Positions 41,883 through 58,881 of a stretch of 61,085 nucleotides of DNA are shown here, one piece after another. The notes beneath the pieces were generated by a model. The model ran no database searches, had not been told where the DNA came from, and was given only the letters and a program-made list of their open reading frames with translations. The stretch covers positions 1 through 61,085 of IMG/VR virus record IMGVR_UViG_3300036715_000569; one strand, written 5' to 3'. Numbering within the stretch: the stretch's first letter is position 1; each line of letters begins with the position of its first letter. The position numbers and the translations under genes were made by a program. Source of the stretch: a virus.

Positions 41883-41969
41883 GTTGTATCGTCAGAGTTG
41901 GAGAGCTGAAGCGGGCTGTAACCCCGTTCCCTTATGGGTGAGTAGGTTCGAATCCTACATGCAACACCA
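41883..41969 (+). tRNA. tRNA-Tyr(GTA)
   Basis: Acceptor GTTGTAT/ATGCAAC, anticodon loop CTGTAAC on a GCGGG/CCCGT stem, long variable arm, T loop TTCGAAT, encoded CCA. Confidence 0.9.
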
Positions 41970-41975
41970 AACAAT

Positions 41976-42050
41976 GGGGGCAGCAGTGGTTTGCGGATCA
42001 CACTTGCAATGTGATTGTCTAGTAGGATTCGATTTCCTCGGCCTCCACCA
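41976..42050 (+). tRNA. tRNA-Ala(TGC)
   Basis: Acceptor GGGGGCA/GGCCTCC with a G3-T70 wobble (the alanine identity pair), anticodon loop CTTGCAA on TCACA/TGTGA, T loop TTCGATT, CCA encoded. Confidence 0.85.
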
Positions 42051-42058
42051 ATAACAAT

Positions 42059-42154
42059 GGAGTAATAGTTTAACGAAAAAACGGCGGCACCTATTGATTT
42101 ATTATCACCGGGAGGATCGCACTTAATAGGTTTAATTCCTATTTTACCCCACCA
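42059..42154 (+). tRNA. tRNA-like, isotype undetermined
   Basis: Acceptor GGAGTAA pairs with TTACCCC with one A-C mismatch, followed by ACCA; positions 8-9 are TA, the D stem is probably GTTT/AAAC and the T arm is ATAGG/CCTAT with an odd TTTAATT loop. The 96-base length and the region ATTGATTTATTATCACC give no clean seven-base anticodon loop (the best, TTTATTA, would read as TAT). Either a diverged class II tRNA, an interrupted anticodon arm or a decaying gene. Confidence 0.5.
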
Positions 42155-42230
42155 AGTTTAAAGAATGCTTTCAGCAAACACACAAATTGAAAAACTTTTA
42201 ATCTTTCAAGATAAAAGCATTCTGTTTTAA
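42155..42230 (+). ncRNA. tRNA-locus RNA module M1 (Lys-like hairpin)
   Basis: First copy of a repeated module: conserved AGTTTAAAG, a 10-bp closing stem AGAATGCTTT/AAAGCATTCT, conserved CAGCAAACA on the 5' side and CTGTTTTA on the 3' side. The short payload folds as TTGAAAAA, loop CTTTTAA, TCTTTCAA (one A-C mismatch), the shape of a lysine (TTT) anticodon arm without the rest of a tRNA. Confidence 0.6.
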
Positions 42231-42234
42231 TTAA

Positions 42235-42309
42235 GCCTCGTTCGTATAACGGACATTACACTGGATTGTCGATCCAATTACAGCGGTTCAACTCCGCTAC
42301 GAGGCGCCA
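42235..42309 (+). tRNA. tRNA-Asp(GTC)
   Basis: Acceptor GCCTCGT/ACGAGGC, G73, anticodon loop TTGTCGA, T arm AGCGG/CCGCT with loop TTCAACT, CCA encoded. Confidence 0.9.
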
Positions 42310-42375
42310 TTTTTAAAGATTACCTACCGCATACAAAATTCACTCAAAATGAAACCATAAGCGTAATCTGTTTTA
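42310..42375 (+). ncRNA. tRNA-locus RNA module M2 (Leu CAA-like hairpin)
   Basis: TTTTTAAAG, closing stem AGATTAC/GTAATCT, CCGCATACAAA on the 5' side and CTGTTTTA on the 3' side. The payload is one hairpin TTCA, loop CTCAAAA, TGAA, which has U33 and would read as anticodon CAA. Confidence 0.6.
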
Positions 42376-42381
42376 GTTTTT

Positions 42382-42457
42382 GCCGGTGTAGCTCAGTGGT
42401 AGAGCACTTCCCTTGTAAGGAATAGGTCGACAGTTCAATTCTAGTCCATCGGCACCA
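42382..42457 (+). tRNA. tRNA-Thr(TGT)
   Basis: Acceptor GCCGGTG/CATCGGC, A73, anticodon loop CTTGTAA on TTCC/GGAA, T loop TTCAATT on an imperfect T stem, CCA encoded. Confidence 0.85.
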
Positions 42458-42461
42458 AGTT

Positions 42462-42522
42462 TTTAATTTAGTATATGCTGATAAGGCGCCGTACAGGACA
42501 GACGGAACCCTACTAAGTTAAA
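42462..42522 (+). ncRNA. Stem-enclosed structured spacer
   Basis: A 12-bp stem TTTAATTTAGTA/TACTAAGTTAAA (one G-T) encloses 37 bases with GC-rich segments (GGCGCCG, GACGGAACCC). It lies between tRNA-Thr and tRNA-Pro and resembles 45131-45186 in plan. Function unknown. Confidence 0.4.
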
Positions 42523-42531
42523 TTGTATTAT

Positions 42532-42607
42532 CTCTGTAAAGTGTTATCTGGTTGCATGTGCCGTTTGGGGCGGTATGGTGTAGGTTCAAATCCTACTACG
42601 GAGACCA
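42532..42607 (+). tRNA. tRNA-Pro(TGG)
   Basis: Acceptor CTCTGTA/TACGGAG, anticodon loop TTTGGGG on TGCCG/CGGTA, T arm GTAGG/CCTAC with loop TTCAAAT, CCA encoded. Confidence 0.88.
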
Positions 42608-42731
42608 AGTTTTAAAGGATCCATTCAGCATAACAACTACACTCTTAATGTCGTGGTCGCAGGTTCGAGTCCTGTTCACTGTGTAAACAGTGGTAGCTCA
42701 GTTGGTAGAGCACGTAAAACTGATCCTGATT
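42608..42731 (+). tRNA. Circularly permuted tRNA-Lys(CTT), module M3
   Basis: Between the module flanks (AGTTTTAAAG, stem AGGATC/GATCCT, CAGCA, CTGATTTA) lies a tRNA in rearranged order. First the anticodon arm CTACA-CTCTTAA-TGTCG (loop 42642-42648), the variable loop TGGTC, the T arm GCAGG-TTCGAGT-CCTGT and the 3' acceptor strand TCACTGT; then a GTAA linker; then the 5' acceptor strand ACAGTGG, TA, and the D arm GCTC-AGTTGGTA-GAGC-A. Rejoined at positions 26/27 it reads as a normal lysine tRNA close to bacterial tRNA-Lys in D and T arms. The acceptor strands pair over seven bases, so the linker is a GNRA-like cap. There is no encoded CCA. A normal tRNA-Lys(CTT) also exists at 43790. Confidence 0.75.
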
Positions 42732-42785
42732 TAATTTTAAAGTATAAAGTTCGGCAGTAAATCGAATTCACTACTTAGTAACAAT

Positions 42786-42859
42786 GCTTCTTTAGGTAAA
42801 TGGTATACCGGGATCTTGATAAGGTCTTATCGATGGTCCGATTCCATCAAGAAGCACCA
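42786..42859 (+). tRNA. tRNA-Ile(GAT)
   Basis: Acceptor GCTTCTT/AAGAAGC, D arm GGTA/TACC, anticodon loop TTGATAA on GGATC/GGTCT, T arm GATGG/CCATC with an unusual loop TCCGATT, CCA encoded. Confidence 0.87.
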
Positions 42860-42887
42860 GTAATCAAATATATTTGTCGGGTTCGAC

Positions 42888-42895
42888 GATAAATA
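42888..42895 (+). promoter_or_regulatory. Late octamer giving a leaderless endonuclease mRNA
   Basis: GATAAATA, five bases (CTATT), then ATG at 42901. Confidence 0.6.
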
Positions 42896-42900
42896 CTATT

Positions 42901-43704
42901 ATGATAAACTGTCCTAAATGCAACATCTTATTTGATGAACAAGGCAAATGGGGTATTAAACAATTTTGTTCCAGATCCTGTGCAAATAGTCGCGGTCCGC
43001 GATCACAAGCAGTTAAAGATGCGATATCTGCAACATTATCCGGCACGGTCGGTCACACTAATATATATAAAGGATGTGAATTAGTCGAAAGAGAAGATCG
43101 TTTCTGCAAAGAATGTTCTAAAACTTTTAGGATTCTTCCATCTTCGTCACAGATATATTGTTCTAAAGAGTGTCGAACACCACACATAGGCGGATATAGG
43201 CAAGGGTCTGGTAGATCGAAATCCGGATATTATAAAGGAATATATTGTGGATCGACATATGAACTTGCGTGGGTTATATACAGATTAGATCACAATTTAT
43301 CTGTTAAAAGATTTGATGGTTACATTTTATATGGCGATAATAAAAAATATTATCCCGATTTTATTGATAATAATTGTGTTATTGAGATAAAAGGTTGGAC
43401 AACAACTGATACTGATATAATTATAGAACAAAAAATGTTAGCATCGAGTCTAGCAGGTTACAAAGTTATTTTACTGAAAAAAGAAGATTTACAGAAAGAA
43501 TTTTGCTGGATAATAGAGAAATATAATACAAATAAGGTATATACACTATATGATGAATATAGTCCAGTTTTTAACTATGTATGTAATCACTGTAATACAG
43601 AATTTGGCAGAAATCATCGGATAAAAACAGAAAATAAATTTTGTAGCAGGGTTTGCGCAGGATTAAATAATAAAGGTAAGAAGATACAAACTAATATTTC
43701 GTGA
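42901..43704 (+). CDS. Homing endonuclease with zinc fingers (PD-(D/E)XK-like)
   Basis: A 267-residue free-standing endonuclease inserted between tRNA-Ile and tRNA-Glu. Three Cys4-type fingers flank the core: CPKCN...CSRSC near residue 4, CKECSKTF...CSKEC near residue 75, and CNHCNTEFGRN...CSRVC near the end. The centre has SGYYKGIYCGSTYELAW, then KKYYPDFIDNNCVIEIKGW, with the D and E-x-K of a PD-(D/E)XK or Vsr-like nuclease (about residues 148-160). I start it at ATG 42901, five bases after a late octamer, rather than at a TTG upstream. Its stop lies within the acceptor stem of tRNA-Glu, so it is fused to the tRNA boundary. Likely a selfish element that targets tRNA-locus DNA. Confidence 0.75.
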   Translation: MINCPKCNILFDEQGKWGIKQFCSRSCANSRGPRSQAVKDAISATLSGTVGHTNIYKGCELVEREDRFCKECSKTFRILPSSSQIYCSKECRTPHIGGYRQGSGRSKSGYYKGIYCGSTYELAWVIYRLDHNLSVKRFDGYILYGDNKKYYPDFIDNNCVIEIKGWTTTDTDIIIEQKMLASSLAGYKVILLKKEDLQKEFCWIIEKYNTNKVYTLYDEYSPVFNYVCNHCNTEFGRNHRIKTENKFCSRVCAGLNNKGKKIQTNIS

Positions 43705-43780
43705 TGACGGCTGGTAACTGTCAGTGCCCTTTCAAGGCACCGCTCGTGTAGCTGGGGTTCGATTCCCCCACGAAATACCA
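43696..43780 (+). tRNA. tRNA-Glu(TTC)
   Basis: Acceptor ATTTCGT/ACGAAAT, D stem TGAC/GTCA, anticodon loop CTTTCAA on GTGCC/GGCAC, T loop TTCGATT, CCA encoded. The variable region is longer than usual for tRNA-Glu. The first bases overlap the end of the homing endonuclease gene. Confidence 0.85.
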
Positions 43781-43789
43781 ATTTTTTTA

Positions 43790-43865
43790 GGGTTCGTAAC
43801 TCAGATGATTAGAGTCCTGCCTCTTAAGCAGAGAGACCCCGGTTTGAATCCGGGCGAACCCACCA
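43790..43865 (+). tRNA. tRNA-Lys(CTT)
   Basis: Acceptor GGGTTCG/CGAACCC, anticodon loop CTCTTAA on CTGC/GCAG, T arm with loop TTTGAAT, CCA encoded. Normal gene order, unlike the permuted Lys module. Confidence 0.88.
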
Positions 43866-43943
43866 ATCATTGTGCTATATGTAGTCACTATGTTATGCTA
43901 TGTATGATGCACCAGGTAGATAGTAGTTTAAAAGGAGTTTATT

Positions 43944-44111
43944 ATGAGAATGAATGACACAAACGATGATGAGAATACAGGTACAGGTACAGGCGCTGAT
44001 ACACCGGTGGGAGCAGATCCATTTACTCCGGTCGATGATAGTCACGCAAATACACGTTATGTAATAATTGCTATAGCTGTATTAGTAATTATTGCTCTTA
44101 TTATATTGTAA
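43944..44111 (+). CDS. Small C-terminally anchored membrane protein
   Basis: A 55-residue protein with a strong ribosome site (AAAGGAGTTTATT). The first 33 residues are acidic and Gly/Thr rich (DENTGTGTGADTPVGADPF); the last 20 are one hydrophobic helix (YVIIAIAVLVIIALIIL). It is therefore a tail-anchored inner-membrane protein with an acidic cytoplasmic head. Another single-span mini-protein with the opposite topology lies next to the spanins at 55336. A lysis or superinfection role is possible but unproven. Confidence 0.6.
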   Translation: MRMNDTNDDENTGTGTGADTPVGADPFTPVDDSHANTRYVIIAIAVLVIIALIIL

Positions 44112-44125
44112 GATACAAAAGATAG

Positions 44126-44205
44126 GTGAGCTAACCTTGTACATGTAAGCTTGCCCGTAAGTCGCGGAGGCCCGACACCGCGTTATAAAATCAGGCGTGA
44201 ACAAT
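44126..44205 (+). ncRNA. Structured spacer before tRNA-Gly
   Basis: Hairpins GAGCT/AGCTT and CGCGG/CCGCG (about 44162-44182) in a stretch with no gene. It may be a diverged tRNA-like element; no anticodon arm could be fixed. Confidence 0.3.
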
Positions 44206-44277
44206 GCGGGTTGTTTGTGGAATACGTTTAGCCTTCCAAGCTGAAAGATGCAGGTTCGAACCCTGTAGCCCGCTCCA
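44206..44277 (+). tRNA. tRNA-Gly(TCC)
   Basis: Acceptor GCGGGTT/AGCCCGC, T73, anticodon loop CTTCCAA on TTAGC/GCTGA, T arm GCAGG/CCTGT with loop TTCGAAC, CCA encoded. Confidence 0.88.
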
Positions 44278-44292
44278 TATCGAAAGTAAACT

Positions 44293-44585
44293 ATGTTTAA
44301 TTTTTTTAAAAAAGAAAATGGGCGTTAGTAAAGAGTTTTAAAGCAACTTTAAATTATGCAGATTATTACATTCATTTATTTGAATCTGAAACAGGTAGTC
44401 GTAAAGCTGAATATATCAAAAATGGTAGTAAGCATCAATTATCTGATTTAAGAACTTTAGAATCATCCGACTTGTATCAATTAAAGGTATATCGATGGTT
44501 GCAAGGTCGAAGGGATCCAGATATCCCGATGTATAGTCAGATAGGTGAAGACGATACAGCAAATTTTTTGAAAGGTAGTATATAG
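44293..44585 (+). CDS. Small protein interrupted by a -1 shift at T7A6
   Basis: From ATG 44293 the frame gives only MFNFFKKENGR and an amber stop. Sliding back one base at the run of seven T and six A (44301-44313) opens a continuous frame of 90 codons to TAG at 44585. That gives MFNFFKKRKWALVKSFKATLNYADYY and a soluble, charged body (SDLRTLESSDLYQLKVYRWLQGRRDP). The combined 97-residue product looks like a real basic-to-acidic small protein. Polymerase slippage on the homopolymers, ribosomal frameshifting, a pseudogene or a sequencing error are all possible. No domain recognised. Confidence 0.5.
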
Positions 44586-44599
44586 TAAATAGTTTCTAT

Positions 44600-44678
44600 T
44601 CCGTAGAATTCGAGCATGGTGCACGGACTTGCCTGTTAAGCAATGACTAGTTGGGATCGTTACCCAAATACGGAGCCA
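44600..44678 (+). tRNA. tRNA-Asn(GTT)
   Basis: Acceptor TCCGTAG/ATACGGA (one mismatch), G73, anticodon loop CTGTTAA on TTGC/GCAA, T arm TTGGG/CCCAA with an aberrant loop ATCGTTA, CCA encoded. Confidence 0.75.
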
Positions 44679-44705
44679 TAATAATGTAGTAAATAGTTTT
44701 ACAAT

Positions 44706-44779
44706 AGGTCAGTAGTGTAATGGTAGCACACGACACTCCAAACGTCTTAGCGAGGGTTCGATTCCTTCCTGATCTGCCA
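44706..44779 (+). tRNA. tRNA-Trp(CCA)
   Basis: Acceptor AGGTCAG/CTGATCT, G73, D arm GTGT-AATGGTA-GCAC, anticodon loop CTCCAAA on a short stem with an A-C pair, T loop TTCGATT, CCA encoded. Confidence 0.82.
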
Positions 44780-44785
44780 AGTTTT

Positions 44786-44863
44786 GCCAGTATAGCTCCA
44801 ATCGCGTAGAGCAGCAGCCTGAAAAGTTGTGTGTTGTCAGTTCGAGTCTGACTACTGGCACCA
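44786..44863 (+). tRNA. tRNA-Phe(GAA)
   Basis: Acceptor GCCAGTA/TACTGGC, D arm GCTC/GAGC, anticodon loop CTGAAAA on GCAGC/GTTGT, T loop TTCGAGT, CCA encoded. Confidence 0.9.
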
Positions 44864-44877
44864 AAATTTAGAAGTAA

Positions 44878-44905
44878 TTGACATATATGCTAAATAGTGT
44901 ATAAT
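44878..44905 (+). promoter_or_regulatory. Sigma70-like promoter inside the tRNA locus
   Basis: TTGACA, 16 bases, TATAAT: both hexamers perfect. It would drive tRNA-Met and the genes behind it. Confidence 0.75.
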
Positions 44906-45050
44906 TACTGTATTAAGAAGTATTTGCAACAGACGCCACAGCTACCGTCGCTACAATGGCAAGACGGAACTGTTGCAGTAAAATGGTAGTAATCTACAAG
45001 GTCTTGTGCTAAAGTCGTCCGAAGAGTAATGTCGAGGGTGCAATAACAGA

Positions 45051-45127
45051 CGCGGTGTGGAGCAGTGGTCAGCTCGCAAGTCTCATAAGCTTGAGGTCGG
45101 TGGTTCGAATCCACCCATTCGCAACCA
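45051..45127 (+). tRNA. tRNA-Met(CAT), initiator-like
   Basis: 5' CGCGGTG and 3' ...CGCAACCA give a C1-A72 mismatch, the mark of bacterial initiators, and the D region TGGAGCAGTGGTCAGCTCG is initiator-like; anticodon loop CTCATAA. The anticodon stem CAAGT/GCTTG lacks the three G-C pairs expected of a strict initiator. Confidence 0.75.
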
Positions 45128-45130
45128 ATT

Positions 45131-45186
45131 TAGTAATAAGATATATTAGAAGAGGCTAACGAATGCCGATCCCTATCTTATTACTA
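45131..45186 (+). ncRNA. 13-bp stem-enclosed structured spacer
   Basis: TAGTAATAAGATA (45131-45143) and its exact complement (45174-45186) enclose 30 bases with a small GGC/GCC hairpin. Same plan as 42462-42522. Confidence 0.45.
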
Positions 45187-45189
45187 TAC

Positions 45190-45275
45190 AGCTTTGAATC
45201 TGATATACCCCGGAGGCGTGAGCCGCATTTGAACGAACGGGTTCCTATACTAACAGATTCGATCATATTTTTATG
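45190..45275 (+). ncRNA. Stem-enclosed spacer with GTGA tetraloop
   Basis: GAATCTG/CAGATTC plus a TATA/TATA extension enclose a payload with the GNRA-capped hairpin GGC-GTGA-GCC and CCCG/CGGG pairing. Directly behind it (about 45275-45345) is a tRNA-like fragment with a TTCAAAT T loop but no matching 5' acceptor strand and no CCA. Confidence 0.4.
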
Positions 45276-45421
45276 TAGTAGCGTAACCAGGAAGCGTGTC
45301 GAACTAGGTAGTTCGAATGTGGGGTTCAAATCCTCCTATCTCTAAAATATGTTTTACAGTTTGAGCATACTATTATCGTTAGACCGGTAACAACGGGAGA
45401 GGTTAGTCACTGCTTAGAAAT

Positions 45422-45498
45422 GCCCCGATGACGGAATTGGTATACGTGTTTGCCTTAGAAGCAAAATCCTGCGAGTTCGAGTCTCGCTTGGGGCACCA
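45422..45498 (+). tRNA. tRNA-Leu(TAG), short variable loop
   Basis: Acceptor GCCCCGA/TTGGGGC, anticodon loop CTTAGAA on TTTGC/GCAAA, T arm GCGAG/CTCGC with loop TTCGAGT, CCA encoded. The variable loop is only five bases, although bacterial tRNA-Leu normally has a long variable arm. Confidence 0.85.
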
Positions 45499-45595
45499 AG
45501 TTTTAAAGAATAGTTGCAGCAAACAAACTGGCGGGAAACCGCTGCCAGACTGTTTAGGTAGGTCGCAAAACAATACCTTAAAAACTATTCTGTTT
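45499..45595 (+). ncRNA. tRNA-locus RNA module M4
   Basis: AGTTTTAAAG, closing stem AGAATAGTT/AACTATTCT, CAGCAAACAAA and CTGTTTCG flanks. The payload holds a GAAA-capped hairpin (CTGGC-GG-GAAA-CC, then GCCAG), a six-base linker, then TA plus a D-arm-like hairpin GGTA/TACC, the same D stem as tRNA-Ile. There is no T-loop consensus and no acceptor stem. Confidence 0.55.
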
Positions 45596-45597
45596 CG

Positions 45598-45720
45598 ATT
45601 TTAAAGCATGATTGCAGCAAACAAACTTATTCCAACCAGCCGCAAGGCACTCTGGAGGCTAGCCCGATGGGGGCAGATGACGTGGGTTCGATTCCCGGCA
45701 AGTCACAACATGCTGTTTTA
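45598..45720 (+). ncRNA. tRNA-locus RNA module M5
   Basis: TTTTAAAG, closing stem AGCATG/CATGCT, CAGCAAACAAA and CTGTTTTA flanks. The payload has a GCAA-capped hairpin (CCAGCC-GCAA-GGC, bulge, TGG), AGGC, then TA and a D-arm-like GCCC-GATGG-GGGC, and finally a T-arm-like GGG-TTCGATT-CCC inside TGAC/GTCA. tRNA-like parts in an unusual order; no complete tRNA can be built. Confidence 0.55.
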
Positions 45721-45728
45721 GTTTCGAT

Positions 45729-45803
45729 GTGGTTAGTGTTGTAATGGTAGCAACCAATCTTGTGACGATTGTAGCGCGGGTTCGATTCCCGTCTTTCCAC
45801 CCA
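45729..45803 (+). tRNA. tRNA-His(GTG)
   Basis: Anticodon loop TTGTGAC on CAATC/GATTG, encoded G at -1 facing C73, T loop TTCGATT, CCA encoded. The acceptor stem has two U-U mismatches in the middle. Confidence 0.8.
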
Positions 45804-45808
45804 ATTTA

Positions 45809-45816
45809 TATAAATA
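45809..45816 (+). promoter_or_regulatory. Late-type octamer TATAAATA
   Basis: TATAAATA 22 bases upstream of the small gene at 45839. Confidence 0.5.
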
Positions 45817-45838
45817 CTGTTATAGTATGGAGAGTATT

Positions 45839-46012
45839 ATGCAAAACATAAATGAATTAACATATACTAAAACTGAAGCAGAAGTATGTGCATTTCTGGA
45901 TGAACAAGCTCAGCGAATGAAAAAAAATAGAGCAGAGGTACAGTCCGCACTAATTATGCTTAAAGCAGAATTAAAAGAGAAACAAGGTGCGGATAGACGA
46001 AATAACAAATAG
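45839..46012 (+). CDS. Small helical protein of unknown function
   Basis: A 57-residue charged helical protein (TKTEAEVCAFLDEQAQRMKKNRAEVQSALIMLKAELKEK). The ATG at 45839 has GGAG seven bases upstream; an in-frame ATG twelve bases earlier has none. It probably forms a helical hairpin. It overlaps the next gene by 26 bases. Confidence 0.55.
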   Translation: MQNINELTYTKTEAEVCAFLDEQAQRMKKNRAEVQSALIMLKAELKEKQGADRRNNK

Positions 46013-46286
46013 TAATATTTTGTGGGGAAAATTAAAAGGTGCTAATTTTGATACTATACAAGATTATTCAAATATAGTTACTTTGTTAAAAACTTTGACA
46101 CAATTAAACAGTCACTATAGAGTTACTATTTACATGCAAACAATTTTAGATTTTGAAAGCATATTAACTAATTTTATAAACAATGATTACGGTAATTATC
46201 CTAGTTCGCAAGATATGAATAGGTTTAATAATAAATGTAAAAAGATGCTATCAAACATACAATATCTTAAATCTAAATTGCCATGA
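45987..46286 (+). CDS. Protein of unknown function
   Basis: A 99-residue protein with a GTG start (MRIDEITNSNILW); the beginning resembles the MRIDEI-type starts common in phage structural or virion-region genes. The rest is helical with Asn/Tyr/Leu (VTLLKTLTQLNSHYRVTIYMQTILDFESIL). Overlaps its neighbours on both sides (26 and 4 bases), so it belongs to a three-gene operon between tRNA-His and tRNA-Cys. Not recognised. Confidence 0.55.
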   Translation: MRIDEITNSNILWGKLKGANFDTIQDYSNIVTLLKTLTQLNSHYRVTIYMQTILDFESILTNFINNDYGNYPSSQDMNRFNNKCKKMLSNIQYLKSKLP

Positions 46287-46489
46287 TAAAACTTTTTATT
46301 ATTGTTTTTATATTACTGTCCTCGGGTTGTTCGACCTTTGAAGTAATGAAAAAGAATGGTAAAGTTTACATTACAACAGATGTCTTACCGCCCATAACAA
46401 ACGATAAAGGATATGGTGCTGATCCTGGCACACATCATCGAATTATGATAAACGGTAAGATAGAATATAGAATTATTCACACTTTTTAA
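46283..46489 (+). CDS. Small lipoprotein
   Basis: A 68-residue protein with a lipoprotein signal peptide: basic start, hydrophobic LFIIVFILL and lipobox LSSGC with Cys at residue 18. The mature part is about 50 residues (FEVMKKNGKVYITTDVLPP). Membrane-anchored lipoproteins in phages can block superinfection or act at lysis; neither can be claimed here. It overlaps the previous gene by four bases (ATGA) and stops one base before tRNA-Cys. Confidence 0.65.
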   Translation: MIKLFIIVFILLSSGCSTFEVMKKNGKVYITTDVLPPITNDKGYGADPGTHHRIMINGKIEYRIIHTF

Positions 46490-46490
46490 T

Positions 46491-46566
46491 GGACCGTTGG
46501 CCGAGATGATCAAGGCGCTAGTCTGCAAAACTGGCTATGGTGGATTGTGACCACCACGGTTCTCCA
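46491..46566 (+). tRNA. tRNA-Cys(GCA)
   Basis: Acceptor GGACCGT/ACGGTTC, T73, anticodon loop CTGCAAA on CTAGT/ACTGG, T arm GGTGG/CCACC with an aberrant loop ATTGTGA, CCA encoded. Confidence 0.82.
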
Positions 46567-46572
46567 AACAAT

Positions 46573-46606
46573 GCCAGGTAAACACATACATCTGTATGTG
46601 CTGGCC
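46573..46606 (+). ncRNA. Bulged hairpin between tRNA-Cys and tRNA-Leu
   Basis: GCCAG, a GTAAA bulge, CACATAC-ATCT-GTATGTG, CTGGC: a 12-bp interrupted stem that may be a processing signal or terminator-like element. Confidence 0.4.
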
Positions 46607-46615
46607 CCTAACATT

Positions 46616-46692
46616 GCCCACGTAGGCCAATCGGCAGAGTCTACAGTCTCAAACACTGCAAAGTATCGGTTCGAATCCGATCGTGGGTACCA
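46616..46692 (+). tRNA. tRNA-Leu(CAA), short variable loop
   Basis: Acceptor GCCCACG/CGTGGGT, anticodon loop CTCAAAC on CAGT/ACTG, T arm ATCGG/CCGAT with loop TTCGAAT, CCA encoded. The variable loop is again only five bases. Confidence 0.82.
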
Positions 46693-46716
46693 TAAACAAA
46701 TATTTACTGATTTTAG

Positions 46717-46745
46717 TTGACAGCAGTAGCAGTATAATGTATAAT
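46717..46745 (+). promoter_or_regulatory. Sigma70-like promoter before the rpoZ region
   Basis: TTGACA, 17 bases, TATAAT, both perfect. It would drive the D-armless tRNA-like RNA and the omega-like gene. Confidence 0.75.
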
Positions 46746-46753
46746 TACACTTC

Positions 46754-46826
46754 GGGCCGCTAAATGCCACGCAAACTAAGAATTTGCAGCAGACTTACAT
46801 CAGGGTCGCGCCCTGAGCGGTCCACC
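46754..46826 (+). tRNA. D-armless tRNA-like RNA (anticodon AAG)
   Basis: Acceptor GGGCCGC/GCGGTCC, then only ten bases before a perfect anticodon arm GCAAA-CTAAGAA-TTTGC, a 12-base variable region, and T arm TCAGG/CCTGA with loop GTCGCGC. The end is ACCG rather than ACCA. There is no room for a D arm. The anticodon AAG would be leucine. Truncated or mimic tRNA rather than a normal one. Confidence 0.5.
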
Positions 46827-46844
46827 GAACACATAAAGGATAAT

Positions 46845-47045
46845 ATGGCACGTATAACATCAGAAAAAGCAGCAAATATGATCGGCAATAAGTTTGATAT
46901 GATACTAATTGCATCGATTCGTGCTAAAGAATTAAAAAAGGGTCATTTAGCTAAAGTAGTATGCGATAATGGTCCTACAGTAACAGCTATTCGTGAAATT
47001 GAAGAAGGATTCATTGGTCGCGAGTATTTAAATAAGATAAAGTAA
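46845..47045 (+). CDS. rpoZ: RNA polymerase omega subunit homologue
   Basis: A 66-residue protein with the complete core of bacterial RNA polymerase omega: MARITSEKAANMIGNKFDMILIASIRAKELKKG, then TVTAIREIEEGFI, matching the conserved MARVT, IGNRFDLVLVAARRARQ and ALREIEEG segments of RpoZ. Omega clamps the beta-prime subunit and influences sigma and ppGpp response. The last 25 residues of the E. coli protein are absent. Start at 46845 with AAAGGATAAT as ribosome site; longer reading frames run back into the tRNA-like RNA and are not used. A phage omega could replace or compete with the host subunit when transcription is remodelled; that is inference. Confidence 0.85.
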   Translation: MARITSEKAANMIGNKFDMILIASIRAKELKKGHLAKVVCDNGPTVTAIREIEEGFIGREYLNKIK

Positions 47046-47053
47046 CAAATAAT

Positions 47054-47128
47054 GCCCGATTAGCTCAGAGGAAGAGCAACACTCTTACAAAGTGAAGGTC
47101 GACGTTTCGAAATCGTCATTGGGTACCA
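47054..47128 (+). tRNA. tRNA-Val(TAC)
   Basis: Acceptor GCCCGAT/ATTGGGT, D arm GCTC/GAGC, anticodon loop CTTACAA on CACT/AGTG, T region with TTCGAAA, CCA encoded. Confidence 0.85.
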
Positions 47129-47136
47129 AGTAATAC

Positions 47137-47222
47137 GGAAGATGATTTGCACAGGGTGCAACACTGTTTTGAAAGCAGCTGGACTCGAAAGGGTTTGGGT
47201 TCGATACCTACTTCTTCCACCA
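47137..47222 (+). tRNA. tRNA-Ser(TGA)
   Basis: Acceptor GGAAGAT/TTCTTCC, anticodon loop TTTGAAA, long variable arm ACTC-GAAA-GGGT as expected for serine, T loop TTCGATA, CCA encoded. Confidence 0.85.
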
Positions 47223-47226
47223 ATAT

Positions 47227-47301
47227 GCGGGCTTAATTCAGCGGTAGAATACCTGGTTGCCAATCAGATTGTCGTGAGTTCGATCCTCACAGTCCGCTCC
47301 A
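47227..47301 (+). tRNA. tRNA-Gly(GCC)
   Basis: Acceptor GCGGGCT/AGTCCGC, T73, anticodon loop TTGCCAA, T loop TTCGATC, CCA encoded. Confidence 0.88.
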
Positions 47302-47371
47302 AGTTTTAAAGGATTCTTTCAGCAACTTAAAATTTTAAATTGGTTTTAAAAGACAAAAGGTATCCTGTTTT
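47302..47371 (+). ncRNA. tRNA-locus RNA module M6
   Basis: AGTTTTAAAG, closing stem AGGAT/ATCCT (then TCTTT against AAAGG), CAGCA and CTGTTTTA flanks. The payload is a single AT-rich hairpin TTAAAATT, loop TTAAATT, GGTTTTAA, again with a seven-base loop, but not a recognisable anticodon. Confidence 0.5.
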
Positions 47372-47373
47372 AT

Positions 47374-47449
47374 CGTCTAATGGCAGAGAGGCAAGAGCGC
47401 AATCCTCATAAGATTGAATACAGTGGTTCGAATCCACTTTAGACGACCA
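47374..47449 (+). tRNA. tRNA-Met/Ile2(CAT)
   Basis: Acceptor CGTCTAA/TTAGACG, anticodon loop CTCATAA on CAATC/GATTG, T arm AGTGG/CCACT with loop TTCGAAT, CCA encoded. Elongator Met or lysidine-type Ile cannot be separated here. Confidence 0.85.
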
Positions 47450-47456
47450 ATAATAA

Positions 47457-47529
47457 CTGCCGTCCAACGGACTTGGTGGCGAGCCTTCGAAGCTTGCTTA
47501 CGGTGATTCGACTTCATCACGGCGGACCA
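47457..47529 (+). tRNA. tRNA-Arg(TCG)
   Basis: Acceptor CTGCCGT/ACGGCGG, anticodon loop CTTCGAA on CGAGC/GCTTG, T loop TTCGACT, CCA encoded. Confidence 0.85.
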
Positions 47530-47548
47530 GATTAACAGGGAGTAACAA

Positions 47549-47803
47549 ATGAACTATGATATTAAGAGTATGGTAAGAGATGGTAAGAAAGTCACTTTCT
47601 TATTTTACAAACAAAATGAATTATGGTATAAAACAGAATGCGGCTTTGCATTTCCTGTACCGATCAACGATACGGGCGATGGCGTTTTCTTAAGTGAAGA
47701 TAAAGCGATGTTGTTCATGCGTTATATAAGAAAAGAAATTGAAGTAATTAAAGCAGCAAAAATAGAACAATCCTCTGATACAACTGAGTTTGCGCAAACT
47801 TAG
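47549..47803 (+). CDS. Small protein of unknown function
   Basis: An 84-residue protein with ribosome site CAGGGAGTAACAA. It is predicted mainly beta at first (KKVTFLFYKQNELWYKTECGFAFPVPI) and helical at the end (KAMLFMRYIRKEIEVIKAAKIEQ). Its plan resembles small accessory proteins of T4-like phages; no function is known to me. It sits alone between tRNA-Arg and tRNA-Gln. Confidence 0.6.
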   Translation: MNYDIKSMVRDGKKVTFLFYKQNELWYKTECGFAFPVPINDTGDGVFLSEDKAMLFMRYIRKEIEVIKAAKIEQSSDTTEFAQT

Positions 47804-47854
47804 TGAATAGTGGCAAATGTGTATATCGACATACACTCAGAGGGCCAGTACAGT

Positions 47855-47928
47855 TGGGATATAGTGAAATGATATCACGCGGGATTTTGAATCCTTAGTT
47901 CTTGGTTTGATCCCAAGTATCCCTGCCA
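47855..47928 (+). tRNA. tRNA-Gln(TTG)
   Basis: 5' TGGGATA and 3' TATCCCT with a weak first pair typical of Gln, G73, anticodon loop TTTTGAA on a GGGA/TCCT-type stem, T loop TTTGATC, CCA encoded. Confidence 0.83.
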
Positions 47929-47942
47929 GTAACAAAGAATAT

Positions 47943-48033
47943 GGAATGCGGGCCGTGCGGTAAAGGCGACACCCTGCTAAGGTGCAAGTTCATGAAAATG
48001 GGCTGCAGAGTTCGACTCTCTGGCATTCCGCCA
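47943..48033 (+). tRNA. tRNA-Ser(GCT)
   Basis: Acceptor GGAATGC/GCATTCC, G73, anticodon loop CTGCTAA on ACACC/GGTGC, long variable arm, T loop TTCGACT, CCA encoded. Confidence 0.88.
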
Positions 48034-48039
48034 AATAAT

Positions 48040-48115
48040 CCCTGTATAGCTCAATGTTAGTAGCAATCCCCTTTTAAGGGATAGGTTCGGTGTTCAAGTC
48101 ACCGTGCAGGGACCA
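48040..48115 (+). tRNA. tRNA-Lys(TTT)
   Basis: Acceptor CCCTGTA/TGCAGGG, D region GCTC...TAGC, anticodon loop CTTTTAA on ATCCC/GGGAT, T loop TTCAAGT, CCA encoded. The stop codon of the opposed homing endonuclease lies inside its 3' end. Confidence 0.88.
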
Positions 48116-48944
48116 GTAATTTTAATAAATCCGAAATTTTAACTCCATTTTTGTATTCGTCATATGAAATACGGAATATAGTATTTTTGGTATTAGTGGT
48201 AATATATTCGTCACGCAATATGTCGGCAGCTATATGTTTTGGTACAAGATGTTGCTTCCCATCTAATTCGACTATTAAGTTTAGTTTAGGGAAATAGAAA
48301 TCAACAAAATACCATCTGTTAGTGATGTGGTTTCTTATACTATGCTCTGGTATAAAATCTGTGATATTATGTAAACTTAGCCATTGTTCGAATGATTCTT
48401 CCATGTATGATCGTTTATCTCTACGAAAATTACTTCGCTTATTTAAAATAATTCGTTCAGTAATATTATTAGATAATAACACAGATTTACATGTAGCAGA
48501 ACAAGTTTTTATATATTTATTTTTAATTAGATTATTACAGATAACACAAAATGATATCTTGCAATATTTTTGACAACCTTTATTCCATGGTATCTGCCCG
48601 GTCTTAGCAAGTATGCGTGATTGTTGTTTTTCGGGTGACATCATTTTGTTACTGTAATATCCACTACACGACTGCGAACAGAATTTATTGTGCCTGATTT
48701 CGTAATCTAAATTAGTTTGGCAATATTGACATTGATTAGGCGAAGTATTATACTGTGTTATGTTATTTAATTTTTGTTTAATCTGATATGCACCACCTAA
48801 ATGTGCTGATTCTTGTAATTGTTTAGTGTTCTGTTGTTTGCCGTCAGTTGTATGTGATATAAGGTAGTGTGTAAATATACCTTTAGCAGACTTAATTTCT
48901 CTACAGTGTATACAAGAAACTAATGGTGATTTATATGTGGTCAT
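48099..48944 (-). CDS. Homing endonuclease with zinc fingers and Vsr-like core
   Basis: A 281-residue free-standing endonuclease opposed to the tRNAs. Cys/His fingers occur at CIHCREIKSAKGIFTHYLISH (residues 11-31), CQYCQTN...CSQSC (about 75-95) and CVICNNL...CSATC (about 135-155). The C-terminal 90 residues hold FVDFYFPKLNLIVELDGKQH, the D and E-x-D/K core of Vsr/DUF559-like nucleases. I use the ATG at 48944, which has a perfect TATAAATA five bases upstream, so the transcript would be leaderless. Its end overlaps the 3' end of tRNA-Lys, so a tRNA gene marks its insertion point. Confidence 0.75.
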   Translation of the reverse strand: MTTYKSPLVSCIHCREIKSAKGIFTHYLISHTTDGKQQNTKQLQESAHLGGAYQIKQKLNNITQYNTSPNQCQYCQTNLDYEIRHNKFCSQSCSGYYSNKMMSPEKQQSRILAKTGQIPWNKGCQKYCKISFCVICNNLIKNKYIKTCSATCKSVLLSNNITERIILNKRSNFRRDKRSYMEESFEQWLSLHNITDFIPEHSIRNHITNRWYFVDFYFPKLNLIVELDGKQHLVPKHIAADILRDEYITTNTKNTIFRISYDEYKNGVKISDLLKLLVPAR

Positions 48945-48949
48945 ATATG

Positions 48950-48957
48950 TATTTATA
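48950..48957 (-). promoter_or_regulatory. Late octamer giving a leaderless endonuclease mRNA
   Basis: TATAAATA on the minus strand, five bases (CATAT), then ATG at 48944. Confidence 0.6.
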
Positions 48958-49011
48958 CTACCATCGACGATAACACCGAATTTAAAGAGCCCTACCATAC
49001 AAAGGAAATAT

Positions 49012-49260
49012 ATGTCTTATAGAAAATTAGTAATTAACGAAAAAACATACGAATATGTTATTGGTAAATCCCATACAAGGATTAAGGGTATCGGAGTTTT
49101 TTTAAATAACGATATTGGGTCTAGATATGATATTTTGTGTGAATGTTGCGGAACTCCTTTGTCGGAACTTTATAATGATTTGACAGCGACAGAAAACAGA
49201 GTAACACCGTCGGATATAAAGACTATGATATTAAAAACTATAAGTCCTGTAACATATTAA
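49012..49260 (+). CDS. Small protein with a CxCC motif
   Basis: An 82-residue protein with ribosome site AAAGGAAATAT directly before ATG 49012. It has a compact beta-like first half (KLVINEKTYEYVIGKSHTRIKGIGVF) and CECCG near residue 43 that could bind metal. The rest is polar (SELYNDLTATENRVTPSDIK). Not recognised. Together with tRNA-Leu(TAA) behind it, it resumes the rightward locus after the homing endonuclease insertion. Confidence 0.6.
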   Translation: MSYRKLVINEKTYEYVIGKSHTRIKGIGVFLNNDIGSRYDILCECCGTPLSELYNDLTATENRVTPSDIKTMILKTISPVTY

Positions 49261-49356
49261 AATGCACTGTATGTAAAACAATGCCTAAATTGATACGGAC
49301 GGCACTGATCACGCTGAAATAATCGATTTCGCCTCTAGCAATTACAGTGTATTTTA
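49258..49356 (+). ncRNA. Stem-enclosed structured spacer
   Basis: An 11-bp stem AATGCACTGTA/TACAGTGTATT (one G-T) encloses about 70 bases with GC-rich parts (GGACGGCACTGATC, TTCGCCTC). Lies between the 49012 gene and tRNA-Leu. Unknown. Confidence 0.4.
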
Positions 49357-49371
49357 ATATGTAGTATCAAT

Positions 49372-49449
49372 GCCCCTGTAGCCCAATTGGTAGCAGGTAA
49401 CAAGTTTAAGCCTTGTCGAGTGTCGGTTCGAATCCGTCCAGGGGTACCA
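49372..49449 (+). tRNA. tRNA-Leu(TAA), short variable loop
   Basis: Acceptor GCCCCTG/CAGGGGT, anticodon loop TTTAAGC on a perfect ACAAG/CTTGT stem, T loop TTCGAAT, CCA encoded. Third tRNA-Leu here with a variable loop of about five bases. Confidence 0.83.
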
Positions 49450-49567
49450 TTTTTAAAGAATGTTTACAGCAACACCATCTTAAAGCCAAACCGCGTGACA
49501 GGGTTCGATTCCCTGCTTGTAGTGTATCGGTAGCACAGCGGTCAAAAAAGAAATACATTCTGTTTTA
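49450..49567 (+). ncRNA. Permuted tRNA-like RNA without acceptor stem, module M7
   Basis: Module flanks TTTTTAAAG, stem AGAATGT/ACATTCT, CAGCA and CTGTTTTA. Inside, in order: ACCGC (49490-49494), GTGA, a perfect T arm CAGGG-TTCGATT-CCCTG, only CTTG, then TA, a D arm GTGT-ATCGGTA-GCAC like that of tRNA-Trp, A, and GCGGT (49538-49542). GCGGT pairs with ACCGC, so the two ends make an anticodon stem: the order is that of a permuted tRNA, but the seven-base acceptor strands are missing. Confidence 0.65.
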
Positions 49568-49572
49568 TCTGT

Positions 49573-49647
49573 TGGGAATTTGTCATCTGGTGATGATACT
49601 AGTCTCTGAAACTATTAAGATGCGTTCGATCCGCATATTCCCTGCCA
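49573..49647 (+). tRNA. tRNA-Gln(CTG)
   Basis: 5' TGGGAAT and 3' ATTCCCT, G73, anticodon loop CTCTGAA on TAGT/ACTA, T loop TTCGATC, CCA encoded. Confidence 0.83.
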
Positions 49648-49652
49648 AATAT

Positions 49653-49727
49653 ATCGCCCTCGTACAGTGGAGAGTACATAACTTTGCGAAAGTTAAAACA
49701 CAAGTTCGATTCTTGTGGGCGGTACCA
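49653..49727 (+). tRNA. tRNA-Arg(GCG)
   Basis: Acceptor ATCGCCC/GGGCGGT, anticodon loop TTGCGAA on TAACT/AGTTA, T arm ACAAG/CTTGT with loop TTCGATT, CCA encoded. Last gene of the main tRNA array. Confidence 0.86.
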
Positions 49728-50126: not shown

Positions 50127-51728
50127 ATGGCAAAATACCTGATAGATTTTAAGAATAACACAACACAGGTAGATATCGATGCATATCTATCTGCAAATAA
50201 CTGCACAATATTAAAAATATTCAGTAAACTTGAAAATACATATTATGTCGAGTGTAATTTGCATCCGTTAGCAACCGATATTATCGAGCATATTATCGAC
50301 GATGATGCAACTACTATACAGTTATTAGATATAACTCCTGTCATTCAGCCTGATGCAGGTTATCCAATAACAATCTCTACAACCGATGAAAAAGACTGGT
50401 GGAAAGTGTATTCTACGGCCAATATTGATATTGCCTCGATTACTTTGCCTATAATGGGTCATGGCACTGGAACGAATGTTTATATTATGGACAGTGGTAT
50501 CGAAATAACACATCCAGAATTTGTAGGTAAAGACATATCAATGGTATATTCACTTACAGGTAGTTTCGATGATAACACTGGCCACGGAACTGCATTAAGC
50601 AGCGTGATAGTTGGTAATACTTGTAGTATAACAAATGCAAGTTTAAAGGTTGTTAAGATATTTGACAATAATGTTGCAACTAAACAGAGTGACATATTAT
50701 ATGCACTTGATGCGATTTTACACGATGCGATTGCTTCGTCAAATTTAGTATCGATTGTAAACATGAGTTGGTCGATTGCAAGAAATACTTATATCGAAGA
50801 TAAAATCCGTGCATTAATTTACGCCGGATTATTAGTCGTATGTGCTTCGGGTAATTCGGGTTTACCGATTGGCGACGTAACACCGGCAGCAATGGACGAG
50901 GTAGTAACAGTAGGGTCATATAACGATTCGTTTAATCCGTCAAATTTTTCAAATTATACAGGAACACTTAATACTACACCGGGAGTTGTAAATACCGGGG
51001 CACTCGATACATGGGCACCAGGCGAACAAATATGGGCTGCTGCATTAGGTGGTGGCTATAGTTTTACGGGTGGCACAAGTATATCATCAGCAATATATTC
51101 TGCATCTATTGCATATAATGCAAGTCAGTTAATTGCCGAGACGACTGACATTTTAAGTATATATAGGACATCAGATGGTTTTATAGATAATGCAGCATTA
51201 ACAGTTCGTGATCGTCGTGGATTACTTAACCTATCGGATCCAAAATATGTAACTTCGGTTAATAAGATTTGTACATACCATAGTGAGTGGGTTAGATCTA
51301 CTAACAGAACGACAAACCCTGTTAGTAAGTTGGTTGTTAAAGTTGGTGATCGCCAGTCTACATATTTTAGTGATGTGCTACAAACTAAAACATATGAAGT
51401 GCTTACTCCACTACCGGATTTTGTAACTATAGAACGTACACTCATAATTGCAAGACCTATTGCGGAACCGACTTCGACATCAAGTGTAGATATATATGAC
51501 ATTCAGATTCGTATCACACCTATAGATTTGTCCGAACCCTATATAGCATTGATTAAATTAGTAGTAACAGGTACATTATTTGATGCAACACTATTACCGG
51601 CTGATGATCCGTTGATAGAAATAACATTACTAAGTGCATGTACAGCGGCTGTTCCACCGAATTGTCATTTATACAATTCTGCATGTACCGGTGCATGTGT
51701 GACGACTGGAAAAGTTTGCTCGTGTTAA
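50127..51728 (+). CDS. Subtilisin-like serine protease (peptidase S8)
   Basis: A 533-residue subtilase with all catalytic residues: Asp122 (YIMDSGIE), His153 (NTGHGTA), oxyanion Asn243 (CASGNSG) and Ser318 (GGTSISS). The first 95 residues resemble a propeptide-like domain (MAKYLIDFKNNTTQVDIDAYL), and there is no signal peptide, so it would act in the cytoplasm or in the virion. After about residue 380 is a beta-domain, and the last 35 residues are Cys-rich (six Cys: SAC, PNC, SAC, GAC, KVC, SC), unusual for a cytoplasmic protease and possibly metal-bound. The start of this gene is partly duplicated at 53489. Its substrate is unknown; it could mature a virion protein. Confidence 0.85.
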   Translation: MAKYLIDFKNNTTQVDIDAYLSANNCTILKIFSKLENTYYVECNLHPLATDIIEHIIDDDATTIQLLDITPVIQPDAGYPITISTTDEKDWWKVYSTANIDIASITLPIMGHGTGTNVYIMDSGIEITHPEFVGKDISMVYSLTGSFDDNTGHGTALSSVIVGNTCSITNASLKVVKIFDNNVATKQSDILYALDAILHDAIASSNLVSIVNMSWSIARNTYIEDKIRALIYAGLLVVCASGNSGLPIGDVTPAAMDEVVTVGSYNDSFNPSNFSNYTGTLNTTPGVVNTGALDTWAPGEQIWAAALGGGYSFTGGTSISSAIYSASIAYNASQLIAETTDILSIYRTSDGFIDNAALTVRDRRGLLNLSDPKYVTSVNKICTYHSEWVRSTNRTTNPVSKLVVKVGDRQSTYFSDVLQTKTYEVLTPLPDFVTIERTLIIARPIAEPTSTSSVDIYDIQIRITPIDLSEPYIALIKLVVTGTLFDATLLPADDPLIEITLLSACTAAVPPNCHLYNSACTGACVTTGKVCSC

Positions 51729-57411: not shown

Positions 57412-57439
57412 TTGACATTTATAAAATTTAGTGTATAAT
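57412..57439 (+). promoter_or_regulatory. Sigma70-like promoter for the permuted tmRNA
   Basis: TTGACA, 16 bases, TATAAT, both perfect, just upstream of the acceptor piece of the tmRNA. Confidence 0.8.
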
Positions 57440-57445
57440 TATTAC

Positions 57446-57865
57446 AGTGAGATGGGAAACTTAATCACTAAAATATTCTGTTTGAAGTTGAACTAAAAGG
57501 TACTTAAGACGGGGATTCGATTTCCCCCGGCTCCACCAAAAACGTCTTAGAAATTGGGTAAACTCGAGTAAAACCTGATATGGCGCAACACTAGAGGTCC
57601 TGGATCCTCTTAACGCTGAAATAGGATGTTCCTGATGGGGCCGACCAGGTTTCGATTAGGTAATAAGTAAGAACAATTAGGAATCGGTAGATGACGACCG
57701 TAAATCGCATAAAATCGTAAATGCAAACGCAAATACATCTGAGTCTTTCGTAGCACTTGACCTATCCGCCTTGGCAGATAGCGATATGGCTATGGAAATG
57801 GTTGCCTAAGAAACACCGACTCCGAGGTAGGAAAAGCCTTGTAACCAAATAAACCAAAATAGAAC
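57446..57865 (+). ncRNA. ssrA: Circularly permuted (two-piece) tmRNA
   Basis: The 3' part of a tmRNA precedes its 5' part. Acceptor piece: T arm GGGGA-TTCGATT-TCCCC (57511-57527), CGGCTCC, A and CCA ending at 57538. After a 98-base intervening segment comes the coding piece, starting GGGGCCG at 57637 and continuing ACCAGGTTTCGATTAGG. GGGGCCG pairs with CGGCTCC over seven bases, including the G3-T70 wobble that marks alanine charging, with A73. TAAGTA/TACTTA could form P2 between the pieces. The tag frame 57723-57809 starts GCA AAC GCA AAT (ANANTSES...) and ends ...MEMVA before TAA: 28 residues, long for a tag. tmRNA frees stalled ribosomes and marks their products for proteolysis. Outer limits are approximate. 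Confidence 0.88.
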
Positions 57866-57870
57866 CTACG

Positions 57871-57892
57871 GGTTCTATTTTTATGACTATTA
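57871..57892 (+). terminator. Terminator behind the tmRNA
   Basis: ATAGAACC, loop TAC, GGGTTCTAT followed by TTTT. Confidence 0.8.
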
Positions 57893-58056: not shown

Positions 58057-58431
58057 ATGAACTATATTATCGAAAAAGACCAACTCGCATCCGTTTTGGC
58101 AGCATGGAAACAACCTAAATCTCACACAGCGTCACAACATGTGATATACAATGTATTACGTGGATATGAACCGAAGCGTGGCTTCACACCAATTACCCGT
58201 CCGACCAAATTAGCAAACGGCGCCGAACAATGGTTTGGATATGACATGGCAATTTTTACAGCACGTTGGGAATTAAGAGAAATAAATAATAAGATGGGTA
58301 GATTTTCTACTGAAGCACAAGCGTTAATTAGAGCTTCGGCGGAGAATGACCGAATTAAAGCAACAAATACGAAATACGGAATTGAAATCACTTCCGAATT
58401 ACGCACAAAATTATTGGAGTTGTTAAAATGA
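58057..58431 (+). CDS. Protein of unknown function
   Basis: A 124-residue protein with ribosome site TTAAGGACATACA. It is soluble and mixed alpha/beta: MNYIIEKDQLASVLAAWKQP, then GYEPKRGFTPITRPTKLANG and a helical end (ELRTKLLELLK). Not recognised. It overlaps the Pth2-like gene by four bases (ATGA), so the two are co-translated; a link to tRNA or ribosome rescue is suggested only by position. Confidence 0.6.
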   Translation: MNYIIEKDQLASVLAAWKQPKSHTASQHVIYNVLRGYEPKRGFTPITRPTKLANGAEQWFGYDMAIFTARWELREINNKMGRFSTEAQALIRASAENDRIKATNTKYGIEITSELRTKLLELLK

Positions 58432-58772
58432 ATTCATACATATACACTTTTATCCGTGAGGATATACCCCATGCACAAAAAATTGTGCAACTCGGGCATG
58501 CCTGTCACGAAGCGGGTAAAATGTTAAATCCGGATGAACATAGAACTCCACCAAACTTAATTCTTTTATCTGCTAAAGATGAGGATGATTTGATAGACAT
58601 TGCTAATAGAATTGACTGTTTCGGAATTGACTTTCACATGTTCCACGAACCTGATGTAAATCGAGAAACAGGTGAGCAAATGGGTCACAGTGCATTATGC
58701 ACTCGACCAATCAAGTCTGATAGGGAACGGTCATTCTTCAGACAGTGGGATTTATATAGGCACACCGATTGA
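58428..58772 (+). CDS. Peptidyl-tRNA hydrolase 2-like protein
   Basis: A 114-residue protein resembling the Pth2/PTH2 fold: a first strand SYIYTFIREDI, the helix start AQKIVQLGHACHEAG corresponding to the Q-x-x-HA segment of Pth2, then PNLILLSAKDEDDLIDIANRI and a last HSALCTRPIKSD strand. Pth2 enzymes release peptides from peptidyl-tRNA left by aborted translation. It lies between the tmRNA and the amber-reading tRNA, which fits a rescue role. The similarity is at the pattern level; phage Pth2-like proteins are diverged and catalytic activity is not assured. Confidence 0.6.
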   Translation: MNSYIYTFIREDIPHAQKIVQLGHACHEAGKMLNPDEHRTPPNLILLSAKDEDDLIDIANRIDCFGIDFHMFHEPDVNRETGEQMGHSALCTRPIKSDRERSFFRQWDLYRHTD

Positions 58773-58807: not shown

Positions 58808-58881
58808 GCCTTGTTAGCTCAGCGGTAGAGCCTGGTCTCTAAAACCTAAGGTCATCGGTTCGAATCCGGTACAGGGCACCA
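58808..58881 (+). tRNA. tRNA with amber anticodon (CTA), suppressor-like
   Basis: Acceptor GCCTTGT/ACAGGGC, A73, TA, D arm GCTC-AGCGGTA-GAGC, anticodon loop CTCTAAA between GGT and ACC, variable loop AGGTC, T arm ATCGG-TTCGAAT-CCGGT, CCA encoded. The seven-base loop with U33 and A37 puts CTA at 34-36, complementary to the UAG stop codon. The outer two pairs of the anticodon stem are mismatched. Several genes here end in TAG (gp22, 27892, 52575, 54478, the first nuclease), so it would allow partial readthrough rather than full recoding. Confidence 0.7.

What the first reader, a model, noticed from the sequence alone, without database searches (positions are those of the whole stretch)
57446..57865. 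Phage-encoded circularly permuted two-piece tmRNA
The sequence shows a T arm, 3' acceptor strand and CCA upstream, and the matching 5' acceptor strand, D-like region and tag frame 98 bases downstream. The seven-base acceptor pairing includes the alanine G3-T70 wobble and A73. A perfect TTGACA/TATAAT promoter and a terminator frame the gene. Two-piece tmRNA is known from alphaproteobacteria, some cyanobacteria and a betaproteobacterial lineage; phage tmRNAs are rare and a permuted phage copy would be unusual. The 28-residue tag (starting ANANTSES, ending MEMVA) differs from the classic AA-ending tags, so tagged proteins might escape or redirect host proteolysis.
Basis: partly seen in the sequence, partly recalled or inferred. 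Interest (0 to 1): 0.9.

Follow-up and report, generated by a model that had tools for sequence, protein, structure and literature searches.

The report
Phage two-piece tmRNA with extended tag
A large freshwater virus of bacteria carries its own two-piece ribosome-rescue RNA; that kind of gene was already known in phages, but this one belongs to a big, largely viral branch in which many copies encode a conserved degradation tag two to three times longer than usual.

Summary
Window 57474-57809 (+) matches Rfam's permuted tmRNA model at 107.4 bits (cut-off 47). Three other viral contigs carry the same kind of gene beside the same neighbour. The tag is probably translated: changes between relatives are mostly synonymous.

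The interpretation needs two corrections. Phage-encoded permuted tmRNAs are already published (Melnitz and others). The MVA ending is no lineage trait: close relatives end in MAA or LLAA, and in E. coli LVA destabilises GFP much as LAA does, so escape from proteolysis is not supported.

What stands out is different. The gene belongs to a large set of viral permuted tmRNAs whose core pattern occurs in at least 120 viral stretches but in only two loci among 84,980 prokaryote genomes. Of 99 parsed copies, 38 encode 23-31-residue tags, in several conserved families. Some relatives carry genes inside the discarded segment, including a thioredoxin and a tRNA. Verdict: real, a new variant of a known kind.

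The parts
57412..57439 (+). sigma-70-type promoter TTGACA-16-TATAAT
   Evidence: 12 of 12 matches; consensus only, not shown to be used
57474..57538 (+). tRNA-like 3' half (first in the gene): paired 5' region, T arm, acceptor 3' strand, A73, CCA
   Evidence: RF04321 alignment; T stem 57511-57515/57523-57527, T loop TTCGATT 57516-57522, acceptor 57528-57534 by direct reading
57539..57636 (+). intervening segment expected to be removed, 98 nt; its ends pair (57541-57549 with 57622-57630)
   Evidence: coordinates and fold; in 90 copies with IVS of 50 nt or more, ends of the same IVS pair in runs of 8 or more in 91%, ends of different IVSs in 27%
57637..57722 (+). tRNA-like 5' half: acceptor 5' strand 57637-57643, D-like loop, stem CGGT..ACCG, stretch up to the resume codon
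   Evidence: RF04321 alignment; acceptor pairs 7 of 7
57723..57809 (+). tag reading frame ANANTSESFVALDLSALADSDMAMEMVA and TAA; resume codon GCA 57723-57725
   Evidence: pN/pS 0.38 over six relatives
57810..57857 (+). 3' part after the tag (CTCCGAGGTAG...GCCTTGTAACCAAA), probable pseudoknot region
   Evidence: by eye, same stretch present in the relatives; pseudoknot not tested
57858..57882 (+). terminator-like hairpin AATAGAACC-TAC-GGGTTCTATT-TTT
58428..58772 (+). 114-aa protein of unknown function that accompanies the tmRNA in relatives
   Evidence: 66-69% identical in L002, L003, L004, each with a permuted tmRNA 2-3 kb upstream; no Pfam family
58808..58881 (+). tRNA with CUA anticodon, conserved beside the 114-aa gene
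   Evidence: neighbour, not shown to belong to the tmRNA function

Best explanation
The gene makes a functional two-piece tmRNA for use during infection. Transcribed from its own promoter, the precursor folds so that the two acceptor strands pair and the ends of the intervening segment close a hairpin beside them. Host tRNA-processing enzymes cut after CCA and before G1 (inferred), leaving two RNAs held together by base pairs. Host AlaRS charges the RNA through G3-U70, and host SmpB brings it to stalled ribosomes (inferred; two sibling jumbo phages bring their own SmpB). Translation resumes at GCA 57723 and adds Ala plus the 28-residue tag. The last residues act as the degron for host AAA+ proteases. 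The first 16-18 residues are an added, conserved stretch that most likely lengthens the unfolded tail or adds a second contact, so that the protease engages truncated proteins better. Net effect: ribosomes are recycled while mRNA is being broken down during infection. Shown: gene architecture, conservation, coding constraint on the tag. Inferred: processing, charging, tagging, the role of the extension.
For: RF04321 at 107.4 bits over the full model; 107-146 bits in most relatives. In 99 parsed copies G3-U70 is invariant and positions 4, 5 and 6 of the acceptor change on both sides while all seven pairs stay in 98 (at least 6 of 7 pairs was a condition for inclusion, G3-U70 was not). Tag: window against L003 7 of 11 changes synonymous (pS 0.36, pN 0.06; P 0.005), L002 against L004 7 of 8 (pS 0.38, pN 0.02; P 0.0004). 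The core LDLSALADSDM is kept while the RNA body around it diverges: the six tags of this class (window, L002, L003, L004, L103, L120), plus a diverged form in L125, fall in several parts of the tree. SmpB in two sibling phages, next to the tmRNA in one.
Against: ARAGORN misses the window's copy and its tRNA-like part sits on a long branch (1.03 changes per site), so it could be decaying. Folding energy is not below shuffles. No SmpB in the window, which is a 61-kb fragment. No expression data. Nothing here tests what the tag extension does.
Confidence: 0.82

Rival explanations
1. The extension is more than a spacer: the long tag is a phage-specific peptide recognised by a particular partner (host adaptor or protease, or a phage protein) and sends tagged proteins to a chosen fate.
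For: Several distinct long-tag families (LDLSALADSDM, SAMSFTGNTV, VTVSGKNVKFSAR), each conserved in sequence rather than only in length; the window's class recurs on diverged RNA bodies.
Against: Many long tags still end in a canonical stretch such as ANESRFALAA or ANDEAFALAA, which suggests the ordinary degron is retained; no copy of the window's motif elsewhere in the held sequences.
Confidence: 0.25
2. Decoy: the RNA titrates host SmpB or blocks host trans-translation instead of tagging, as proposed for the tRNA-like-only tmRNA of mycobacteriophage DS6A.
For: The tRNA-like part has diverged strongly; inhibition of tmRNA by a phage tmRNA-like RNA has precedent (PMC11915505, PMC4131195).
Against: DS6A lacks a tag frame; here the tag is kept and under constraint.
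Confidence: 0.07
3. A decaying or passenger copy of a host tmRNA gene picked up by the phage.
For: ARAGORN misses it; beta model under its cut-off.
Against: Intact promoter, acceptor stem, T arm and tag; synonymous changes dominate; present beside the same gene in three other contigs; the viral core pattern is nearly absent from prokaryote genomes.
Confidence: 0.06

Closest known systems
Phage two-piece tmRNAs (Methylophilales phage Melnitz, Pelagibacter phage Mosig; PMC9004378)
   Same: Permuted gene in an aquatic phage; RF04321 113.4 and 93.6 bits
   Different: Tags of 14 and about 9 residues instead of 28; the Melnitz gene is alphaproteobacteria-like per its authors, this one is nearest the betaproteobacterial model
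Betaproteobacterial two-piece tmRNA (Rfam RF01850)
   Same: Best-scoring lineage model for this gene and nearly all relatives; same order of parts
   Different: Window scores 77.4 against a cut-off of 84; 13 of 14 strong Burkholderiales copies have 10-11-residue tags
tmRNA and SmpB of huge phages (PMC7162821)
   Same: Large phages carrying tmRNA, SmpB and release factors; sibling G002 has all three close together
   Different: No mention of permuted forms or long tags in the passages found
Long tags of Mycoplasma/Mesoplasma tmRNAs (own knowledge)
   Same: Tags of more than 20 residues
   Different: One-piece genes of cellular bacteria that rely on Lon; unrelated tag sequence; recalled, not tested

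Membership tests
Permuted tmRNA (RF04321) | Covariance-model score above the curated cut-off | tested here: met
   107.4 bits against 47
Permuted tmRNA (RF04321) | 3' acceptor half upstream of 5' acceptor half, separated by an intervening segment | tested here: met
   57528-57538, then 98 nt, then 57637-57643
Permuted tmRNA (RF04321) | Alanine identity: G3-U70, A73, CCA; T arm with TTCGANT loop | tested here: met
   Direct reading; invariant G3-U70 in 99 copies
Permuted tmRNA (RF04321) | Tag frame with Ala resume codon and stop, under coding constraint | tested here: met
   GCA ... TAA; pN/pS 0.38
Permuted tmRNA (RF04321) | Pseudoknots around the tag | not tested
   Model covers only the tRNA-like domain (PMC11915505)
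Permuted tmRNA (RF04321) | Processing to two RNAs | not testable with these tools
   Needs RNA ends from infected cells
Betaproteobacterial tmRNA (RF01850) | Score above the curated cut-off | tested here: not met
   77.4 against 84, though E 2.8e-23; relatives reach 87-162 bits
tmRNA-SmpB system carried by the phage | SmpB gene | tested here: inconclusive
   None in the window, a fragment; present in siblings G002 and G004

The most novel reading that the evidence does not exclude
Aquatic viruses maintain their own large branch of permuted tmRNAs, in which the tag has become a phage-specific peptide that redirects the fate of truncated proteins, and in which the discarded intervening segment serves as a slot for extra genes.
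Probability: 0.22. Interest if true: 0.75.

Novelty: new variant of a known kind. Interest (0 to 1): 0.5.

Why it matters
The most frequent tmRNA tag length is ten residues (PMC11915505). A viral branch with many conserved tags of 23-31 residues gives natural variants for asking what tag sequence beyond the last few residues does, and whether phages steer protein degradation during infection. It also bears on why phages carry ribosome-rescue RNA at all, a question that published phage genomes raise but do not answer.

Tried and rejected
ARAGORN on the window: no tmRNA call. Nucleotide search of phage genomes: only short matches, none over most of the gene. Tag peptide against phage genomes: no match, but a 28-residue query has little power. 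A second pattern for the LDLSA tag class found nothing because my allowed gap was too short. Folding energy against shuffles: uninformative. Stop-codon reassignment because of the CUA tRNA: rejected, 10 of 42 plausible genes end in TAG. Copy of the tag motif in another protein (mimicry): none found in held sequences. First parse of the relatives failed through a wrong distance in my script and was replaced. Tree: placement of the window beside L103 joins two long branches and is unsafe. L274, a Burkholderiales hit with a 28-residue ARAGORN tag (GNQPSNLQ...), was not checked and may be a miscall.

Full report
What is there. The window is a 61,085-base virus record. A search of all of it against Rfam gives one permuted tmRNA at 57474-57809 on the plus strand, 107.4 bits against a cut-off of 47. 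A full-consensus promoter lies upstream and a hairpin with a T-run downstream. ARAGORN does not call this copy and the folding energy is no better than that of shuffled sequence, so the case rests on the covariance model and on relatives.

Relatives. A neighbouring 114-residue gene led to three other viral contigs (L002, L003, L004), each with a permuted tmRNA upstream (107-131 bits) and a tRNA beside that gene whose anticodon is read as CUA (CUAA in L003). The portal protein is 84-93% identical to that of contigs of up to 385 kb, and the best isolated match is Pseudomonas phage PA5oct, 286.8 kb, at 58%, so the window is probably a piece of a jumbo phage. Of 32 related records searched whole, 15 carry a permuted tmRNA above the cut-off, though many of these 32 were chosen because they have one.

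A mostly viral branch. A pattern from the core of these genes (CCGTAAATC...CGTAAANGCAAACGC) matches 26 viral stretches and no contig of a collection with one genome for each of 84,980 prokaryote species, 257 billion bases. The patterns were drawn from viral copies, which favours viral matches. Permuted tmRNA as such is not viral only: 14 of 300 Burkholderiales genomes have a strong match, 13 of them with tags of 10-11 residues.

Structure under selection. In 99 distinct parsed copies (two of them from the prokaryote assemblies above) the two acceptor strands pair at all seven positions in 98; positions 4, 5 and 6 vary on both sides; G3-U70 never varies. At least six pairs were required for parsing, so the pairing rate is inflated, but neither G3-U70 nor the two-sided changes were required. 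The ends of the intervening segment also pair with each other far more often than ends taken from different copies (91% against 27% with a run of eight or more). In the window these are 57541-57549 and 57622-57630. This fits a precursor held in place for cutting.

The tag. Tag lengths fall in two groups: 10-14 residues (61 copies) and 23-31 (38 copies). The share of long ones is biased upward because the first pattern selected for the start of such tags. Long tags form families: LDLSALADSDM (the window's), SAMSFTGNTV, VTVSGKNVKFSAR, FEYF. Many look like an ordinary ten-residue tag with an added front part, for example ANADTFDFSAMSFTGNTVRGA + ANESRFALAA. In the window's class synonymous changes dominate (pN/pS 0.38; window against L003: pS 0.36, pN 0.06). 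The SAMSFTGNTV and VKFSAR classes give 0.32 and 0.45; the FEYF class gives 0.96 and shows no constraint. So for three classes the peptide itself appears to be kept. In the window's class the MVA ending is shared only with L103; L003 ends MAA and differs there by one base.

How it probably works. Ordinary trans-translation with a longer tag. The last residues resemble degrons that ClpXP accepts: LAA and LVA both destabilise GFP more than AAV or ASV (PMC9097571), while a changed penultimate residue raises KM (PMC7652416). For longer degrons ClpXP translocates along the tail before meeting the folded part (PMC7652416), so a longer tail is usable and could help engagement; that is inference. The window has no SmpB, but two siblings do, in one next to the tmRNA and near an RF-1-domain protein; the rest presumably use host SmpB.

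What is known. Two-piece phage tmRNAs were reported in 2022, mostly in aquatic phages (PMC9004378); tmRNA and SmpB in huge phages in 2020 (PMC7162821); 79 phage sequences are in the 2025 tmRNA database (PMC11915505). I confirmed permuted-model matches in the isolates Melnitz, Mosig and Phosso. I found no report of long-tag families in phages, but the library held is incomplete.

Genes in the intervening segment. In the parsed set, 15 of 110 segments hold a reading frame with a ribosome-binding-site-like motif that ends within 14 bases of G1, against 1.05 expected from shuffles. One is a thioredoxin (Pfam E 4.1e-21) inside a tmRNA scoring 136 bits (L192); several are similar small membrane peptides; L087 and L098 hold a tRNA-Arg. 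A tRNA in such a segment has one precedent (PMC11915505). The window's own segment holds no such gene.

Noticed in passing
L192 28-539 (-); also L187, L156, L165, L148, L190, L094, L091: Reading frames with ribosome-binding-site-like motifs inside the intervening segment of permuted tmRNA genes, most ending one base before G1; the one in L192 is a thioredoxin, several are similar small membrane peptides. 15 of 110 against 1.05 expected.
   Followed up: partly
L087 2734-2808 (-), L098 498-572 (-): tRNA-Arg (CCG) nested in the intervening segment of a permuted tmRNA.
   Followed up: no
L129 1483-1908 and 2739-3290 (-); G002 261280-262043: A 369-kb sibling phage has tmRNA, SmpB and an RF-1-domain protein close together.
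   Followed up: partly
window 58808-58881; L002 5363-5437; L003 5365-5439; L004 5361-5436: tRNA with CUA anticodon conserved beside the tmRNA neighbourhood, although TAG is an ordinary stop here (10 of 42 genes); in L003 ARAGORN reads a four-base anticodon CTAA.
   Followed up: partly
window 41883-49727: 23 tRNA genes in about 8 kb.
   Followed up: no
window 50127-51728: Subtilase-family protease (Pfam PF00082, E 1e-15) in the phage genome.
   Followed up: no
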